NCBI RefSeq assembly: GCF_029910235.1
Contig: NZ_CP112874.1
Coordinates: 2,914,001-2,978,000, forward strand
Reading direction: 5' to 3'
Source of the DNA: Pseudanabaena galeata CCNP1313
Lineage (GTDB): Bacteria > Cyanobacteriota > Cyanobacteriia > Pseudanabaenales > Pseudanabaenaceae
DNA length: 64,000 bases
A model generated the notes under the pieces. It worked only from the letters and a program-made list of their open reading frames with translations, had not been told where the DNA came from and ran no database searches. A program made the translations under genes and the position numbers. Each line of letters starts with the position of its first letter. The stretch's first letter is position 1. Shown here in pieces: positions 7,810-63,261 of this stretch.

Positions 7810-7859
7810 ACTAAGCTCTCCATCTACATTGCTATATAGCAATGTAGATGGAGAGCTTA
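7810..7859. repeat. perfect 25-bp-arm palindrome
   Basis: CTAAGCTCTCCATCTACATT followed by GCTAT and then the exact reverse complement, with no loop. It overlaps the left end of the family A element at 7835, so that end has become a longer palindrome of its own. Confidence 0.7.
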
Positions 7860-7954
7860 GGACATAAAACCCAAAAGATGAGTGGCGGCGCTTTGCGCCG
7901 CCACTCATCTTTTGGGTTTTGATTTTTGTCCGAGCTAACTCTTACATTGCTATA
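7835..7954. repeat. MITE-like palindromic element, family A copy 2
   Basis: The ends are TATAGCAATGTA and, inverted, TACATTGCTATA. Nested inside are TTAGGACATAAAACCC against GGGTTTTGATTTTTGTCC and the core palindrome AAAAGATGAGTGGCGGCGC/GCGCCGCCACTCATCTTTT. It lies between the DCC protein and the epimerase. Confidence 0.75.
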
Positions 7955-8924: not shown

Positions 8925-9037
8925 AACGACAGTTCGACGAAAGCAGAAAATGGTAAGAATCGCTAAGCGATTCTTACCATTTTCTGCCATTTGCGGCGTG
9001 CTTCGCACGCCGCAAATGGCTATATCGAACTCACGTT
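8925..9037 (+). repeat. 113-bp double-hairpin element, family C copy 1
   Basis: Starts AACGACAGTTCGACGAAAGC and ends TATATCGAACTCACGTT, giving imperfect terminal inverted repeats. Hairpin 1 is GCAGAAAATGGTAAGAATCG, loop CTAAG, and its complement. Hairpin 2 is GCCATTTGCGGCGTGC, loop TTC, and its complement. Against the other copies, hairpin 1 has two changes that are compensated on the other arm (AGA/TCT for GAA/TTC). Confidence 0.85.
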
Positions 9038-15500: not shown

Positions 15501-15604
15501 CTTTTCAGCACCTGCGGTGCTGAAAACCTTAAAATCGGTTTTGATGAAAGTCAGCCGACGGCTGACTTTCATCAAAACCGATTTTTTACAATGAGAATTG
15601 CTGA
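15501..15604. repeat. two palindromes with shared mobile-family flanks
   Basis: The first (15501-15526) is TTTTCAGCACCTGCGGTGCTGAAAA. The second (15531-15585) is AAAATCGGTTTTGATGAAAG with TCAGCCGACGGCTGA at its centre and its complement. The right flank ACAATGAGAATTGCTGAG recurs near 12480. The AATCGGTTTT outer stem matches family E at 7318 and 63073. Confidence 0.65.
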
Positions 15605-17041: not shown

Positions 17042-17140
17042 TATAGCTATAGCTAACTGTATCAGAACAAATCAAAACCCAAATAGTGTGAGGCGGCGCT
17101 TCGCGCCGCCTCACACTATTTGGGTTTAAAGTGTAGCAAC
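17042..17140. repeat. MITE-like palindromic element, family A copy 3
   Basis: The left end TATAGCTATAGCTAACTGTA matches the inverted right end of the copy at 39551. Inside is AAACCCAAATAGTGTGAGGC and its complement around GGCGCTTCGCGCC. The right end is degenerate or truncated. It is in the opposite orientation to the 39551 copy. Confidence 0.65.
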
Positions 17141-17158: not shown

Positions 17159-17271
17159 AACGTCAGTTCGACGAAAGCGAAAAATGGTAAGAATCGCTAA
17201 GCGATTCTTACCATTTTTCGCCATTTGCGGCGTGCTTCGCACGCCGCAAATGGCGATATAGAACTCACGTT
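17159..17271 (+). repeat. 113-bp double-hairpin element, family C copy 2
   Basis: AACGTCAGTTCGACGAAAGC to ATATAGAACTCACGTT. Hairpin 1 carries the loop CTAAG and hairpin 2 the loop TTC. It is the consensus-like copy of the family in this window. Confidence 0.85.
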
Positions 17272-17289: not shown

Positions 17290-17369
17290 AGGGTTTTAAA
17301 AACACAAAATGGCTAAGCCATTTTGTGTTTTAGCAAAAATATAGAGACGCAAAGCGTCTCTATATTTTT
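17290..17369 (-). terminator. two hairpins downstream of the carboxyl-terminal protease gene
   Basis: 17335-17369 is AAAAATATAGAGACGC, loop AAA, and its complement with a T-run, 3 bp from the protease stop codon: a good intrinsic terminator. 17290-17332 is GGGTTTTAAAAACACAAAAT plus GGCTAAGCC plus its complement; the same sequence recurs inverted at 53468-53511, so it is a dispersed repeat. Confidence 0.6.
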
Positions 17370-20476: not shown

Positions 20477-20640
20477 CCCAAAATAGCAATGGCGGCACTA
20501 AGTGCCGCCATTGCTGTTTTGGGGGTTATGTCCTGATCAAAACTTGCGTTGCAATAGACGAGTGGCGGCGCTTCGCGCCGCCACTCGTCTATTGCAACGC
20601 AAAAAGCAAAGGCAGCCCATGGGGCTGCCTTTGCTTTTTG
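20477..20640 (+). terminator. three successive hairpins after amt
   Basis: 20477-20523: CCCAAAATAGCAATGGCGGC with its complement, the likely amt terminator. 20544-20602: TTGCGTTGCAATAGACGAGT plus GGCGGCGCTTCGCGCCGCC and complement, with the family A core. 20601-20640: AAAAGCAAAGGCAGCCCAT and complement. They fill the gap up to the sulfite reductase leader. Confidence 0.55.
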
Positions 20641-37599: not shown

Positions 37600-37896
37600 T
37601 TAGTTCTGTTTAAATACTTGCTCAATATCCCTTGAACCATGAAGCAACCGAATTACATCAATACCACCCTCAATCTGCTGATAAAACACAACATAATTAC
37701 CGATAGGAAAGCTCCGTAAATCTGGCAATAACTCTGGTCTTTTCCGTCCCAAACCTGAATTCTGAGCCAAAGTCAACAACTTACTTTCTATTCGATCTAA
37801 AAAATCATCCGCTCTATCTGGACTATCATCGGCAATATAATCCCAAATATCCAGCAAATCCAACTCAGCAAGCGGACGCTTCAGAATGATTGCCAT
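37600..37896 (-). CDS. parE: ParE-like toxin (TA locus 6)
   Basis: 98 residues. LAELDLLDIWDYIADDSPDR, ADDFLDRIESKLLTLAQNSG and GRKRPELLPDLRSFPIGNYV, VFYQQIEGGIDVIRLLHGSRD are classic ParE segments. ParE poisons DNA gyrase. The start shares its base with the antitoxin stop, so the pair is coupled (ATGA-like junction at 37896). Confidence 0.87.
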   Translation of the reverse strand: MAIILKRPLAELDLLDIWDYIADDSPDRADDFLDRIESKLLTLAQNSGLGRKRPELLPDLRSFPIGNYVVFYQQIEGGIDVIRLLHGSRDIEQVFKQN

Positions 37897-38153
37897 TATT
37901 GCACCTGCTTCTGTTGCTTGCGCTGACGTGCCGTTGCCTTCACTGCCTGTATATCAAGAGGCGTAGCATCACCACTATCTAAACCCGCCTGAATATCTTG
38001 ACGTAACTCCTGCAAACGCAACTGCTGAAGTTGATCCCGTTCTTGCAATAATCTCAAACCCTCACGCACAACCTCACTAGCAGAATAGTACAAGCCAGTA
38101 CTAACCTTTCCCTGTATAAAGCTCTCTAGCTCAGGCGTTAGAGACACATTCAT
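37896..38153 (-). CDS. parD: ParD-like antitoxin (TA locus 6)
   Basis: 85 residues. NVSLTPELESFIQGKVSTGL and YYSASEVVREGLRLLQERDQ form the ribbon-helix-helix of ParD. The C-terminal glutamine-rich helix (LRQDIQAGLDSGDATPLDIQ) binds ParE. It is the first gene of the pair. Confidence 0.87.
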   Translation of the reverse strand: MNVSLTPELESFIQGKVSTGLYYSASEVVREGLRLLQERDQLQQLRLQELRQDIQAGLDSGDATPLDIQAVKATARQRKQQKQVQ

Positions 38154-38236
38154 AAGTTTAGTCCTCTAAATAATCTTGATATCAATATTCTCGCTGTAAT
38201 AACAGTAAATAGCAATAACTGTTATCAAATTTATTG

Positions 38237-38392
38237 AGCGATCGCATTTTTGGGATGGGGATTGGGCGATCGTGTTTTTGTGAGTGGTGGGGCGATCGCG
38301 TTTTTTAGGGAGGGATTGGGCGACCGCGTTTTTGTGGGGGGATGATTGGGCGATCGCGTTTTGTGTGTGGATTTGGCGATCGTGTTATCCTG
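38237..38392 (+). repeat. directional HIP1-type array 7
   Basis: About six units (GAGCGATCGCATTTTTGG, TTGGGCGATCGTGTTTTTGT, GGGGCGATCGCGTTTTTTAG, TTGGGCGACCGCGTTTTTGT, TTGGGCGATCGCGTTTTGTG, TTTGGCGATCGTGT) between TA loci 6 and 7. One unit has lost the palindrome (GCGACCGC). Confidence 0.82.
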
Positions 38393-38452
38393 TCACACAT
38401 TTTTTGTTTTTGCAGTAAAATAAGCCTATTACTTCTACATAGACTTACAGTT

Positions 38453-38680
38453 ATGACAGTAGAATTTGCACCAATTTTTGAGCTAGGACTTTCAGAAAAG
38501 CTACAGCTTCTTGAGGACTTATGGGATAACATTGCAACTCAACCAGCAAATATTCCTGTACTAGACTGGCAAAAAGAAGAACTAGCTAAAAGAAAACTAT
38601 CTCACTCCCAAAATCCTAATTTAGCAAGTTCTTGGGATTCAGTAAAAGCAAGAATCCGTAGTCATCAAAGAAATGGCTAA
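38453..38680 (+). CDS. orphan addiction-module antitoxin component (TA locus 7)
   Basis: 75 residues. LGLSEKLQLLEDLWDNIATQ, PANIPVLDWQKEELAKRKLS fits the small addiction-module component family (TIGR02574-type) normally paired with a ParE-like toxin. No toxin gene follows; a Phd/YoeB pair starts 66 bp later. It is either an orphan antitoxin or the remainder of a broken pair. The ATG at 38453 is used; the frame upstream runs into array 7. Confidence 0.75.
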   Translation: MTVEFAPIFELGLSEKLQLLEDLWDNIATQPANIPVLDWQKEELAKRKLSHSQNPNLASSWDSVKARIRSHQRNG

Positions 38681-38746
38681 GAGTCTACAAATGTGTAATT
38701 AGCAGAAAAAAGTGGTACGATAAATTGTACAAGTTTAAGTGTATTA

Positions 38747-39010
38747 ATGAAAATTCTTAATGCGAGTGAAGCGAGAGCCAACTTGTTCAGCTTAGTCGAA
38801 CAGGTTAACAAAGATCATTTACCAAGAATTATTACGAGTCGGCAAGGTGATGCGGTATTGCTGTCTAAATCTGATTGGGAGAGCATACAGGAAACTCTCT
38901 ATCTTCAATCTATTCCTAATTTAGTTGAGTCAATTAAATCCGCCGAACAATTGGATGAGTGGGTTTCTGAAGATGAATTTTTAGGAGCATTGAATGGAAT
39001 GGAAGATTGA
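38747..39010 (+). CDS. TA locus 8 antitoxin, Phd/YefM-like (87 aa)
   Basis: MKILNASEARANLFSLVEQV, NKDHLPRIITSRQGDAVLLS, SDWESIQETLYLQSIP are clear YefM signatures. It overlaps the toxin gene by 17 bp. Confidence 0.88.
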   Translation: MKILNASEARANLFSLVEQVNKDHLPRIITSRQGDAVLLSKSDWESIQETLYLQSIPNLVESIKSAEQLDEWVSEDEFLGALNGMED

Positions 39011-39251
39011 ATTTAGTCGAAATGTGATTAAGGATGCTAAAAAGTTGAAGTCTGCCAATTTGGACTCAAACCTCAAATCTCTACTAGAAATCCTCAAGCA
39101 GAATCCCTATGAACCTCCCTATGAGAAACTTTCAGGCAACTTGAAAGGATATTTCTCAAGACGCATCAATATCAAACATCGATTGGTTTATGCCATCAAT
39201 GAAGAAACTAAAACCATTAGAGTTGTTTCTGTGTGGTCACATTATGAATAG
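38994..39251 (+). CDS. TA locus 8 toxin, YoeB-like (85 aa)
   Basis: MEWKIEFSRNVIKDAKKLKS, PPYEKLSGNLKGYFSRRIN and KHRLVYAINEETKTIRVVSV match the Txe/YoeB family (YEKLxGNLxGxxSRRIN, HRLVYxI, SxWSHY), ending SHYE. It is the last complete TA locus of the island. Confidence 0.86.
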   Translation: MEWKIEFSRNVIKDAKKLKSANLDSNLKSLLEILKQNPYEPPYEKLSGNLKGYFSRRINIKHRLVYAINEETKTIRVVSVWSHYE

Positions 39252-39362: not shown

Positions 39363-39735
39363 CGATCGCTGGTAGATCGAACTACCAAAACTGTTGAAAC
39401 ACTCACCACAAGATGGGGACGTTTTGTTGATGTGTTAGTTGAGCCTGCGGTATTACGCTTATCCCCCAAAAAAGTATTGACGTAAAAGAAGTTTCGAGCC
39501 AGAACTAAGCATCAAGGATTTGCGGTGGAAATTGTTATACGAGCTATCGATATAGCTGTCGACATTCTTGTTAGGACATAAAACCCAAATAGTGTGAGGC
39601 GGCGCTTCGCGCCGCCTCACACTATTTGGGTTTTGAGTTTGTCCTGATACAGGTGGCTATAGCTATAACACTGAGTTAGTCCTAGTGGAATGTAAGTCGC
39701 GTTTATCATCGGTAAACAACAGCAAACCTACTCAA
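39363..39735 (+). pseudogene. decayed PD-(D/E)XK nuclease-like gene (DUF3782 type) interrupted by a family A element
   Basis: Pieces of a DUF3782-like protein are readable: VDRTTKTVETLTTRWGRFVD and VLVEPAVLRLSPKKV (39372-39476), then IDVKEVSS in another frame, then RTKHQGFAVEIVIRAID up to 39550, and NTELVLVECKSRLSSVNNSK after 39667. VECKSRL carries the ExK of the nuclease motif. At least two frameshifts and the inserted element (39551-39667) break the gene. Removing the element at the TA target joins IRAID with NTELVLVECK in frame. Confidence 0.72.
39551..39667. repeat. MITE-like palindromic element, family A copy 4, inside a pseudogene
   Basis: Ends are TATAGCTGTCGACATTC and, inverted, TATAGCTATAGCCACCTGTA. 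Nested are AGGACATAAAACCC against GGGTTTTGAGTTTGTCCT and the perfect palindrome AAATAGTGTGAGGCGGCGC/GCGCCGCCTCACACTATTT. The outermost TA at each side fits a target-site duplication. The insertion splits a recognisable coding sequence, so this copy must have moved. Confidence 0.8.
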
Positions 39736-39838
39736 ATTATTATGTCATAGCTTATTCGCTTGCATTAGCGTGGTATGGCGATCGACTAAGTATTACTACG
39801 GGCTATAATCAACCCCAAGTCTATAAATTTTTGTAAAT

Positions 39839-40825
39839 ATGTCGTCCCCAACCCCTGACGTACCAGCGAGCGAGTCTCGCGAAGCCCGTACCCGCCAAAT
39901 GCTCGGAATGAAAGGTGCGGACATTAAAGAAGCTTCGATCTGGAAGATCCGCTTGCAATTGATGAAACCGATTACATGGATACCCCTAATGTGGGGCGTA
40001 CTCTGCGGCGCAGCCTCCTCTGGTGAGTTTGCATGGTCAGTTGAAAATGTATTTCGATCGCTACTTTGTATGCTCATGTCAGGGCCCCTACTGACAGGCT
40101 ATACCCAGACAATCAATGACTATTACGATCGCGAAATCGACGCAATTAACGAACCCTATCGTCCGATTCCATCGGGAGCAATTCCCCTCAATCAAGTCAT
40201 TGCTCAGATTTGGGTTTTGCTGCTTGGTGGTATTGGTGTCGCCGCAATTCTGGATATCACGGCTGGTCATACGGACTTTATCATGACCAAATTAGCGCTG
40301 GGTGGCTCATTGGTTGCCTACATCTACTCAGCACCACCTTTGAAGCTCAAGCAAAATGGATGGCTGGGCAACTATGCTCTTGGGGCAAGTTATATTGCTC
40401 TACCTTGGTGGGCAGGTCATGCGCTTTATGGCACTCTCAACTGGACAGTGGTAGTCGTGACACTGTTCTATAGTCTTGCGGGCTTAGGAATCGCTGTTGT
40501 CAATGACTTTAAGAGTGTGGAAGGCGATCGCGAATTGGGATTAAAATCTTTGCCAGTGATGTTTGGGGTGCAGAAAGCTGCCTTAATCTCAGCAACGGCG
40601 ATCGATGTCTTCCAAATTGGCATTGCTGTTTATTTAGTTACCGTTGGCGAACAATTACTAGCAAGTTTGATTGTGCTGTTAGTGATTCCGCAAATTACAT
40701 TCCAAGATATGTACTTCCTGCGTGATCCCCTCAAGAATGATGTGAAATATCAGGCTAGCGCTCAACCATTTCTGGTAATTGGGATGTTAGTCGCAGGGAT
40801 TGCGATGGGACATGCTGGTATCTAA
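39839..40825 (+). CDS. chlG: chlorophyll synthase
   Basis: 328 residues with about nine membrane helices. The UbiA-family Asp motifs are NDYYDREIDAINEPYRPIPS (first) and NDFKSVEGDRELGLKSLPV (second), which bind the diphosphate through magnesium. RTRQMLGMKGADIKEASIWK is a ChlG N-terminal stretch. It attaches the phytyl or geranylgeranyl tail to chlorophyllide a, the last step of chlorophyll synthesis, in the thylakoid membrane. Start: the ATG at 39839 fits the usual short N-terminus. Confidence 0.93.
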   Translation: MSSPTPDVPASESREARTRQMLGMKGADIKEASIWKIRLQLMKPITWIPLMWGVLCGAASSGEFAWSVENVFRSLLCMLMSGPLLTGYTQTINDYYDREIDAINEPYRPIPSGAIPLNQVIAQIWVLLLGGIGVAAILDITAGHTDFIMTKLALGGSLVAYIYSAPPLKLKQNGWLGNYALGASYIALPWWAGHALYGTLNWTVVVVTLFYSLAGLGIAVVNDFKSVEGDRELGLKSLPVMFGVQKAALISATAIDVFQIGIAVYLVTVGEQLLASLIVLLVIPQITFQDMYFLRDPLKNDVKYQASAQPFLVIGMLVAGIAMGHAGI

Positions 40826-40860
40826 AGCATAAAGGGACGCTAAGCGTCCCTTTATGCTTT
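40824..40860 (+). terminator. hairpin terminator after chlG
   Basis: AAAGCATAAAGGGACGC, loop TAA, GCGTCCCTTTATGCTTT, starting within the stop codon TAA of chlG. A good rho-independent shape apart from a short T-run. Confidence 0.65.
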
Positions 40861-53640: not shown

Positions 53641-53753
53641 AACGTGAGTTCGATATAGCCATTTGCGGCGTGCGAAGCACGCCACAAATGGCGAAAAATG
53701 GTAAGAATCGCTAAGCGATTCTTACCATTTTTCGCTTTCGTCGAACTGACGTT
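53641..53753 (-). repeat. 113-bp double-hairpin element, family C copy 3
   Basis: Inverted relative to copies 1, 2 and 5 (AACGTGAGTTCGATATAGCC to TCGTCGAACTGACGTT). It sits directly against the truncated family B element and ends 3 bp from the kinase stop codon. Hairpin 2 has one unpaired change (GTGGCGTGC against GCGGCGTGC). Confidence 0.85.
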
Positions 53754-60398: not shown

Positions 60399-60510
60399 AC
60401 GTGAGTTCGATATAGCCATTTGCGGCGTGCTTCGCACGCCGCAAATGGCGAAAAATGGTAAGAATCGCTTAGCGATTCTTACCATTTTTCGCTTTCGTCG
60501 AACTGACGTT
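60399..60510 (-). repeat. double-hairpin element, family C copy 4
   Basis: AACGTGAGTTCGATATAGCC to AACTGACGTT, inverted orientation. Hairpin 1 carries CTTAG and hairpin 2 carries TTC as written, so in the reference orientation the hairpin 2 loop is flipped relative to other copies. Its last base pair overlaps the purH stop codon region at 60509-60511. Confidence 0.85.
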
Positions 60511-63148: not shown

Positions 63149-63261
63149 AACGTCAATTCGACGAAAGCGAAAAATGGCAAGAATCGCTTAGCGATTCTTG
63201 CCATTTTTCGCCATTTGCGGCGTGCTTCGCACGCCGCAAATGGCTATATCGAACTCACGTT
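63149..63261 (+). repeat. 113-bp double-hairpin element, family C copy 5
   Basis: AACGTCAATTCGACGAAAGC to TATATCGAACTCACGTT. Hairpin 1 carries GGCAAG/CTTGCC instead of GGTAAG/CTTACC (compensated) and the loop is TTA rather than TAA. Confidence 0.85.

What the first reader, a model, noticed from the sequence alone, without database searches (positions are those of the whole stretch)
39363..39735. MITE-like element inside a decayed nuclease gene, with a TA target and rejoinable frame
The family A element at 39551-39667 interrupts a DUF3782-like coding sequence. Removing it together with one TA copy joins ...VEIVIRAID and NTELVLVECKSRLS in frame, giving the expected EI(x)n...VECKSRL motif spacing. 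This gives direct evidence that the element inserted at TA and moved as a unit. Other frameshifts show that the gene was already decaying or has decayed since.
Basis: partly seen in the sequence, partly recalled or inferred. Interest (0 to 1): 0.8.

Follow-up and report, generated by a model that had tools for sequence, protein, structure and literature searches.

The report
TA-inserted MITE with self-inverting hairpin
A 115-base non-coding mobile element of a cyanobacterium (genus Pseudanabaena) really did jump into a TA site of a broken gene copy, and its central hairpin, like many other tight hairpins in these genomes, tends to keep its two arms matched and shows its tiny loop turned round so often that loop orientation looks random between close relatives.

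Summary
Window 39551-39667 is a 117-bp repeat with TA at both ends; leaving out 115 bp rejoins a DUF3782 reading frame. Of 15 other homologous places found in the genus, the 14 that span the site, one an intact paralogue in the same genome, are uninterrupted there. For 6 of 10 other copies tested, empty sites in other species carry a single TA. The family is in 26 of 26 genus genomes and 0 of 32 others. An IS630-type element of a congener has similar ends (22/28); no close transposase was found in this genome. So: an IS630-type MITE, a new member of a known kind. The allelic empty site of this very insertion was not seen.

The larger result is the core. In 105 copies, core-arm changes are mostly paired (101 cells to 28 one-sided), changes in the paired ends one-sided (167 to 1). 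One insertion shared by two sister genomes differs only by an inverted loop. Across 318 kb of those genomes (0.58% substitutions) 45 of 83 comparable tight hairpins have inverted loops, against 2 of 880 with arms under 12. Hairpin template switching is the likeliest cause; read-level proof is lacking.

The parts
39551..39667 (+). Family A element (MITE), 117 bp with the TA at each end; 115 bp inserted
39551..39552 (.). TA target copy, left
   Evidence: TA at both ends in 99 of 113 copies
39666..39667 (.). TA target copy, right
39551..39578 (+). left end (28 nt). The family's consensus left and right ends pair at 20 of 28 positions; each is 22/28 like the end of an IS630-type element in G003
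39640..39667 (-). right end (28 nt), read inward TATAGCTATAGCCACCTG...
39580..39605 (+). palindrome, left arm (26 nt)
39606..39608 (+). loop TTC; TTC in 58 and GAA in 42 of 113 copies oriented by their ends (sample biased towards TTC)
39609..39634 (+). palindrome, right arm (26 nt)
39372..39550 (+). decayed DUF3782 gene fragment, 5' part (frameshifted, N-terminus missing)
39668..39708 (+). decayed DUF3782 gene fragment, 3' part (the rest of the C-terminus missing)
39714..39838 (+). upstream region of chlG; homology to the best-matching relatives resumes at 39714
15531..15585 (.). other window hairpin (arms 27, loop 1) whose loop is inverted in G012
17335..17369 (.). other window hairpin (arms 16, loop 3) whose loop is inverted in G012

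Best explanation
Family A is a non-autonomous IS630-type (Tc1/mariner-like) MITE. A transposase of that kind, recognising the TATAGC... ends, inserted it into a TA dinucleotide of a truncated DUF3782 gene copy upstream of chlG and duplicated the TA (insertion shown; transposase inferred). Inside the element sits a tight hairpin (26-bp arms, 3-nt loop). When this DNA is single-stranded, most likely at the replication fork, one arm folds on the other and serves as template; this template switch copies one arm onto the other and turns the loop round. The outcome (paired arm changes, inverted loops) is seen in the assemblies; the switching step is inferred. It is not a property of the MITE alone: in the two sister genomes compared, hairpins with arms of about 12-14 bp or more and loops up to 4 nt behave so generally, and their loop orientation is close to 50:50 although the genomes are only 0.58% apart.
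For: Insertion: 14 homologues uninterrupted; empty sites with one TA for 6 of 10 other copies; TA at both ends in 99 and length 116 bp in 103 of 113 copies; an IS630-type (DDE_3) gene in G003 running into an end 22/28 like both family A ends, and a copy bounded by two such ends 953 bp apart, L165:1475-2427. Core: 89 of 113 copies have 26/26 paired arms; core 101 paired to 28 one-sided, ends of the same 105 copies 1 mirrored to 167 one-sided; leaving out the 19 copies with a second type of right end, 77 to 23 against 0 to 120. In place: L245/L246, 716 aligned columns, 4 flank substitutions, loop GAA vs TTC the only difference in the element; family A insertion shared by G000 and G017 (L123/L237) with one paired arm change; a hairpin next to a family A copy in G008/G017 (L219/L238) with inverted loop and one paired change. 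Wider: 45 inverted to 38 same for arms 14 or more and loop 4 or less, against 2 to 878 for arms under 12; one per distinct inner arm, 34 to 27. Other species pairs at 90-94% identity: 5 inverted, 6 same.
Against: No allelic empty site for this insertion. No transposase close to the G003 one in this genome (E up to 1e-20), so what moved it here is open; end similarity is only 22/28. Counted as distinct types rather than cells, core changes are 32 paired to 20 one-sided, a weaker contrast. Loop orientation does not correlate with copy divergence (Mann-Whitney p = 0.65 and 0.38). Three family A insertions shared with G012 (L005, L010, L016) all have the same loop orientation. L016's empty site in four species is not TA. 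Between G023 and G025 arm changes at arms of 14 or more are mostly one-sided (2 paired, 21 one-sided). No reads were seen, and the near-saturation rests on one pair of genomes.
Confidence: 0.85

Rival explanations
1. The hairpin is kept perfect by selection for an RNA (terminator, mRNA end or small RNA), with ordinary two-step compensatory mutation; loop changes are neutral.
For: One hairpin, just after chlG (40824-40860), keeps its position in many relatives with changing arms. Selection and template switching can act together. In the sister genomes fresh arm changes are mostly one-sided, as a two-step process would give.
Against: Exact inversion of 3- to 7-nt loops in place is not expected from point mutation. 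One-sided core changes show no strand bias: 9 give a G-U wobble in one RNA strand, 8 in the other, 11 in neither. The paired ends of the same element show next to no paired change (1 of 168).
Confidence: 0.1
2. Loop inversions are sequencing, amplification or assembly artefacts at hairpins.
For: Perfect hairpins are hard templates; G025 is a draft of about 160 contigs; no reads were available.
Against: Inversions occur at hairpins of only 31-37 bp in all (14- to 17-nt arms), shorter than a usual read, and nearly vanish below 12-nt arms. Inverted loops also occur in four genome pairs. Paired arm changes between copies and species are not explained by such an artefact.
Confidence: 0.1
3. Arms are matched and loops turned by recombination between different copies of the repeat (gene conversion), not within one hairpin.
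For: The family has many near-identical copies, and a palindrome can pair with another copy in either orientation.
Against: Thirteen of the 32 paired-change types occur in a single copy, so no donor was seen among the copies examined; of 61 comparable hairpins with distinct inner arms in the stretches compared, 34 are inverted, though copies elsewhere in those genomes were not excluded.
Confidence: 0.1
4. The repeat is not mobile; the DUF3782 fragment acquired it by rearrangement with another locus.
For: The fragment itself is a truncated piece seen next to chlG in this genome only.
Against: Exact 115-bp insertion at TA, and clean empty sites for six other copies.
Confidence: 0.03

Closest known systems
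IS630/Tc1-mariner-type bacterial MITEs, e.g. RUP of Streptococcus pneumoniae (properties recalled; PMC3049150 seen in a search listing only)
   Same: about 110 bp, non-coding, terminal repeats, TA target, many copies, thought to be moved by an IS630-type transposase
   Different: other sequence and host; carries a perfect 26-bp hairpin with inverting loop; no close transposase found in this genome
IS630-type insertion sequence of the same genus (L165, G003:C47)
   Same: its two ends are 25/28 and 24/28 like the G003 end that resembles both family A ends; begins and ends with TA
   Different: 953 bp; a DDE_3 ORF and a second ORF that looks like a helix-turn-helix part (no domain search made)
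Template-switch arm homogenisation and spacer inversion in short inverted repeats (yeast: PMC8604942, abstract and passages seen; rRNA and microRNA genes: PMC8794818, passages seen)
   Same: paired arm changes and exact loop inversion
   Different: reported there for 39 yeast protein genes and as rare loop inversions in rRNA; here 45 of 83 comparable tight hairpins differ between two genomes 0.58% apart
Small hairpin-associated inversions of chloroplast genomes (e.g. PMC6005162; search listings only)
   Same: loops of stem-loops invert, as I recall repeatedly; chloroplasts descend from cyanobacteria
   Different: bacterial chromosome, very short loops, extent measured across 318 kb
REP/REPIN palindromes (PMC3116915, PMC3733652; search listings only)
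   Same: short palindromic repeats, many copies
   Different: ends here read TATAGC with a TA target; RAYT transposase not searched for

Membership tests
MITE | short, non-coding, with terminal inverted repeats | tested here: met
   103 of 113 copies are 116 bp; consensus ends pair at 20 of 28 positions
MITE | many dispersed copies with target duplication | tested here: met
   56 distinct own-genome places at 92 bits or more; TA at both ends in 99 of 113
MITE | empty sites lacking exactly the element and one target copy | tested here: met
   14 DUF3782 homologues; 6 of 10 other copies
MITE | mobilised in trans by an autonomous element's transposase | not testable with these tools
   no experiment possible; end similarity only
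IS630/Tc1-mariner-derived | TA target | tested here: met
   exceptions: L016's empty site reads TG/TT in four species, one of L019's two reads CA
IS630/Tc1-mariner-derived | ends shared with an IS encoding a DDE_3 transposase | tested here: inconclusive
   22/28 with a G003 element; no element with identical ends found; none close in own genome; no end above 18/28 near the 22 own DDE_3 matches
REP/REPIN | GTAG/CGTC tag next to the palindrome and a RAYT transposase | not tested
   no RAYT search made; ends read TATAGC
DUF3782 (host gene) | Pfam PF12644 match | tested here: met
   intact paralogue 30.2 bits over cut-off 24.4; the 40-aa open piece of the fragment itself has no hit
hairpin template-switch process | arm homogenisation plus loop inversion at fixed loci | tested here: met
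   loop inversion; paired arm change at shared sites; the molecular mechanism itself not testable here

The most novel reading that the evidence does not exclude
In Pseudanabaena, tight chromosomal hairpins invert their loops so fast that orientation is randomised between sister genomes (from the lower confidence bound, at least about one inversion per hairpin while 0.58% substitutions accumulate, some 178 times the substitutions per site), and the same process copies arm onto arm. The genus' dense MITE and hairpin complement would then be both fuel and product of it: by extrapolation from 29 such hairpins in this window, a few thousand near-neutral, self-correcting binary switches per genome, probably mixed within a single culture, and a bacterial counterpart of chloroplast hairpin inversions.
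Probability: 0.65. Interest if true: 0.7.

Novelty: new variant of a known kind. Interest (0 to 1): 0.55.

Why it matters
The MITE itself is an ordinary kind of element. Its value is as a natural experiment: more than a hundred copies whose asymmetric ends give a fixed reference for the orientation of an inner palindrome, plus sister genomes with the same insertion. This helps to separate arm-to-arm copying from RNA selection and makes the question of how perfect hairpins arise and stay perfect directly testable in a bacterium. If loop orientation is as labile as it looks, compensatory changes in such stems should not be read as proof of RNA selection, and loop inversions should not be used as phylogenetic characters.

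Tried and rejected
Orthologous empty site at chlG: BLAST of the window region against the 23 relatives' chlG loci found no DUF3782 fragment, so this test is not available. Own-genome IS630 copies as parent: near the 22 DDE_3 matches no stretch matched a family A end at more than 18 of 28; the seven-copy group has ends TATAGCGGTTTTCAAATGAGC; the ends of several others were not determined. Age test: loop orientation against divergence of the ends, no correlation. G012's 13 of 13 TTC copies looked like a recent burst, but the copies were picked by BLAST rank with a TTC query, so not used; the same bias affects the 58:42 count. SbcD loss as cause of the hairpin richness: rejected, SbcD matches in 57 of 58 genomes. 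Other cyanobacteria: among 325 locus pairs only 6 tight hairpins were comparable (3 inverted, 3 same), 5 of them from Pseudanabaena, so generality is untested. E. coli K-12 against REL606, 45 kb aligned: no comparable tight hairpin; one inversion among 42 comparable loops of up to 4 nt with 6-7-nt arms; uninformative. Rows dropped before counts: arms 14 or more with loop 4 or less, 2 indel and 1 other, 28 of 39 hairpins not comparable (20 no matching hairpin, 8 other loop), one copy with under 22 paired positions, 8 of 113 copies far from the consensus ends; one search contains pairs that are the same assembly under two handles, so its totals are not used. The G023/G025 stretches were chosen around places scored by the family A model, so they are hairpin-rich by choice.

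Full report
What is there. The window lies at G000:C1:2914001-2978000 of a 5.84-Mb genome; the nearest ChlG proteins among named genomes are from Pseudanabaena. At 39551-39667 there is a 117-bp sequence that begins and ends with TA, has related but unequal ends, and holds a perfect palindrome (26-bp arms, loop TTC). It splits a decayed stretch, 39372-39708, homologous to a DUF3782 gene. An intact paralogue in the same genome (189 aa, PF12644, 30.2 bits against a cut-off of 24.4) lacks it. Joining the flanks at one TA and aligning to the homologous places found in the genus (15 places besides the window) gives alignment without a break at the join in 14 of 15; the 15th does not reach it. The paralogue has GATGAC where this copy has GATAAC, and the other 13 also have GATG, so the TA target is peculiar to this copy.

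The evidence here is paralogous: the 23 relatives' chlG loci returned showed no DUF3782 fragment in BLAST (up to 1.5 kb upstream held), homology resuming at 39714 in the best of them, so an allele without the insert was not seen. 'Nuclease' rests on matches below the curated cut-offs. And whether decay came before or after insertion cannot be told from one copy.

A family, and mobile. With the element as DNA query 26 of 26 genus genomes match and 0 of 32 genomes outside. A covariance model finds 56 distinct places at 92 bits or more in the own genome (150 of 4698 candidates scored). I gave 137 loci to the extraction; it found 113 copies with recognisable ends, 99 with TA at both ends, 103 of them 116 bp long. 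For 10 other own-genome copies I searched the genus with joined flanks and aligned the loci in hand: six have empty sites with one TA at the join in other species (L002 in 12 places, L003 in 2, L012 in 1, L019 in 1 of 2, L021 in 1, L027 in 2); L016 is empty in four species, but the site there reads TG or TT; L005, L010 and L016 are filled in G012 at the same site; L011 has a longer insert there. So the unit that moves is the element, into TA.

Source of mobility. Near the 22 DDE_3 (IS630-type) transposase matches of the own genome nothing matches a family A end at more than 18 of 28. In the genus G003 has an IS630-type transposase whose gene runs into an end TATAGCTGTCGCCAAGTGTATTAGGACG, 22/28 identical to each consensus family A end; a copy bounded by two such ends (25/28 and 24/28), 953 bp, lies at L165:1475-2427 with its coding part in two ORFs. 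Relatives of this transposase at E up to 1e-20, some only about 40% identical, occur in 9 of 26 genomes, not in the own genome. I infer that family A was mobilised by this type of transposase; the own genome may now lack it.

The core behaves differently from the ends. When copies are turned by their unequal ends, the loop is TTC in 58 and GAA in 42 of 113 copies (the sample leans to TTC because most copies were ranked with a TTC query). Arms are perfect in 89 of 113 copies although they differ between copies: 32 kinds of paired change at 19 positions, against 20 kinds of one-sided change. In 105 copies near the main consensus, core changes are paired in 101 cells and one-sided in 28; the 20 paired positions of the ends show 167 one-sided and 1 mirrored. 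Without the 19 copies that share a second type of right end: 77 and 23, against 120 one-sided and 0 mirrored. Cells are not independent events, but the contrast lies within the same molecules. One-sided core changes show no preference for G-U in either strand (9, 8, and 11 neither), which does not suggest selection on one RNA.

In place. An insertion shared by G025 and G023 (L245, L246) differs in 716 columns by four substitutions in the left flank and by the loop, GAA against TTC; nothing else. A family A insertion shared by G000 and G017 (L123, L237; 715 bp at 91.9%) shows one paired arm change, and in G008/G017 a hairpin directly beside a family A copy (L219, L238) shows an inverted loop and one paired change. 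Against this, the three insertions shared with G012 all keep the same loop.

Not only this element. In 20 pairs of stretches from G023 and G025, chosen around hairpin-model hits (29 aligned blocks, 317,957 columns, 1,833 substitutions), hairpins with arms of 14 or more and loops of 4 or less were inverted in 45 and unchanged in 38 (2 indel and 1 other set aside). Loops of 5 or more with such arms: 3 inverted, 28 same, 2 other, 1 indel. Arms of 12-13: 2 inverted, 11 same; 10-11: 0 and 17; 6-9: 2 and 861 (other and indel rows set aside). Taking one hairpin per distinct inner arm: 34 inverted, 27 same. In the same comparison changes within arms of 14 or more were 2 paired and 21 one-sided, so if both are due to one process, correction of arms lags behind turning of loops. 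Between other species at 90-94% identity, 5 loops were inverted and 6 the same, with 28 of 39 not comparable; two of the inverted ones are window hairpins 15531-15585 and 17335-17369 against G012. A proportion near one half at both distances is what a saturated two-state process gives. With the Wilson lower bound of 0.435 the number of inversions per hairpin since the split is at least about 1.0, some 178 times the substitutions per site, if the inversions are real.

How it most likely works. Arms long enough and loops short enough to fold, arm-to-arm copying and exact turning of the spacer are the marks of template switching at hairpins, described for yeast coding repeats (PMC8604942, abstract and passages) and, as rare loop inversions, for rRNA genes (PMC8794818, passages). 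Chloroplast small inversions at stem-loops are a parallel (search listings only). I did not see a report of near-saturated loop inversion in a bacterial genome in the listings; that library lacks most subscription journals. Cruciform cutting and repair is not excluded. SbcD, by recall a subunit of a hairpin nuclease, is not lost; 25 of 26 genus genomes even have a second match over the curated cut-off. Artefact at the level of reads or assembly remains the main doubt, weakened by the arm-length threshold and by inverted loops in four further genome pairs.

Verdict. Observation confirmed, interpretation supported, the MITE a new member of a known kind. The process acting on its core deserves the interest: it is known in kind but, if real at this rate, new in extent as far as I could see.

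Noticed in passing
window, whole; G023/G025 stretches L278-L317: Perfect hairpins (arms 14 or more, loop 4 or less) are unusually dense: 29 in the 64-kb window against 0 in 50 kb of E. coli K-12; among the cyanobacterial chlG loci of 10 kb or more the five densest are all Pseudanabaena and the median is 0.
   Followed up: partly
8943-8987, 17177-17221, 53691-53735, 60448-60492, 63167-63211: Another repeated hairpin, GCGAAAAATGGTAAGAATCGCT or a near variant, with a single-base loop; five copies in the window, loop A in three and T in two.
   Followed up: no
721-775, 7866-7920, 20544-20602: Hairpins of other MITE-like families sharing the GGCGGCGC(TTC or TTT)GCGCCGCC apex and, in the first two, the TTAGGACA-T-AAAACC motif.
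   Followed up: no
17042-17127: Truncated family A copy on the minus strand (93% over 86 bp); at the aligned place G012 has a hairpin with the same apex and loop but different outer arms, perhaps another family or a converted core.
   Followed up: no
40824-40860: Hairpin directly after chlG, present at the aligned place in many relatives with changing arms and, against G012 and G005, the opposite loop.
   Followed up: partly
37600-39251: Two small toxin-antitoxin gene pairs upstream of the decayed gene: ParE/ParD-like at 37600-38153 and Phd/YoeB-like at 38747-39251.
   Followed up: no
G000:C1:3827751-3828512 and relatives: A second SbcD match over the curated cut-off in 25 of 26 genomes of the genus (not G013); the rest of the family shows only weak or fragmentary second matches.
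   Followed up: no
7811-7860: Loopless palindrome of 25-bp arms.
   Followed up: no
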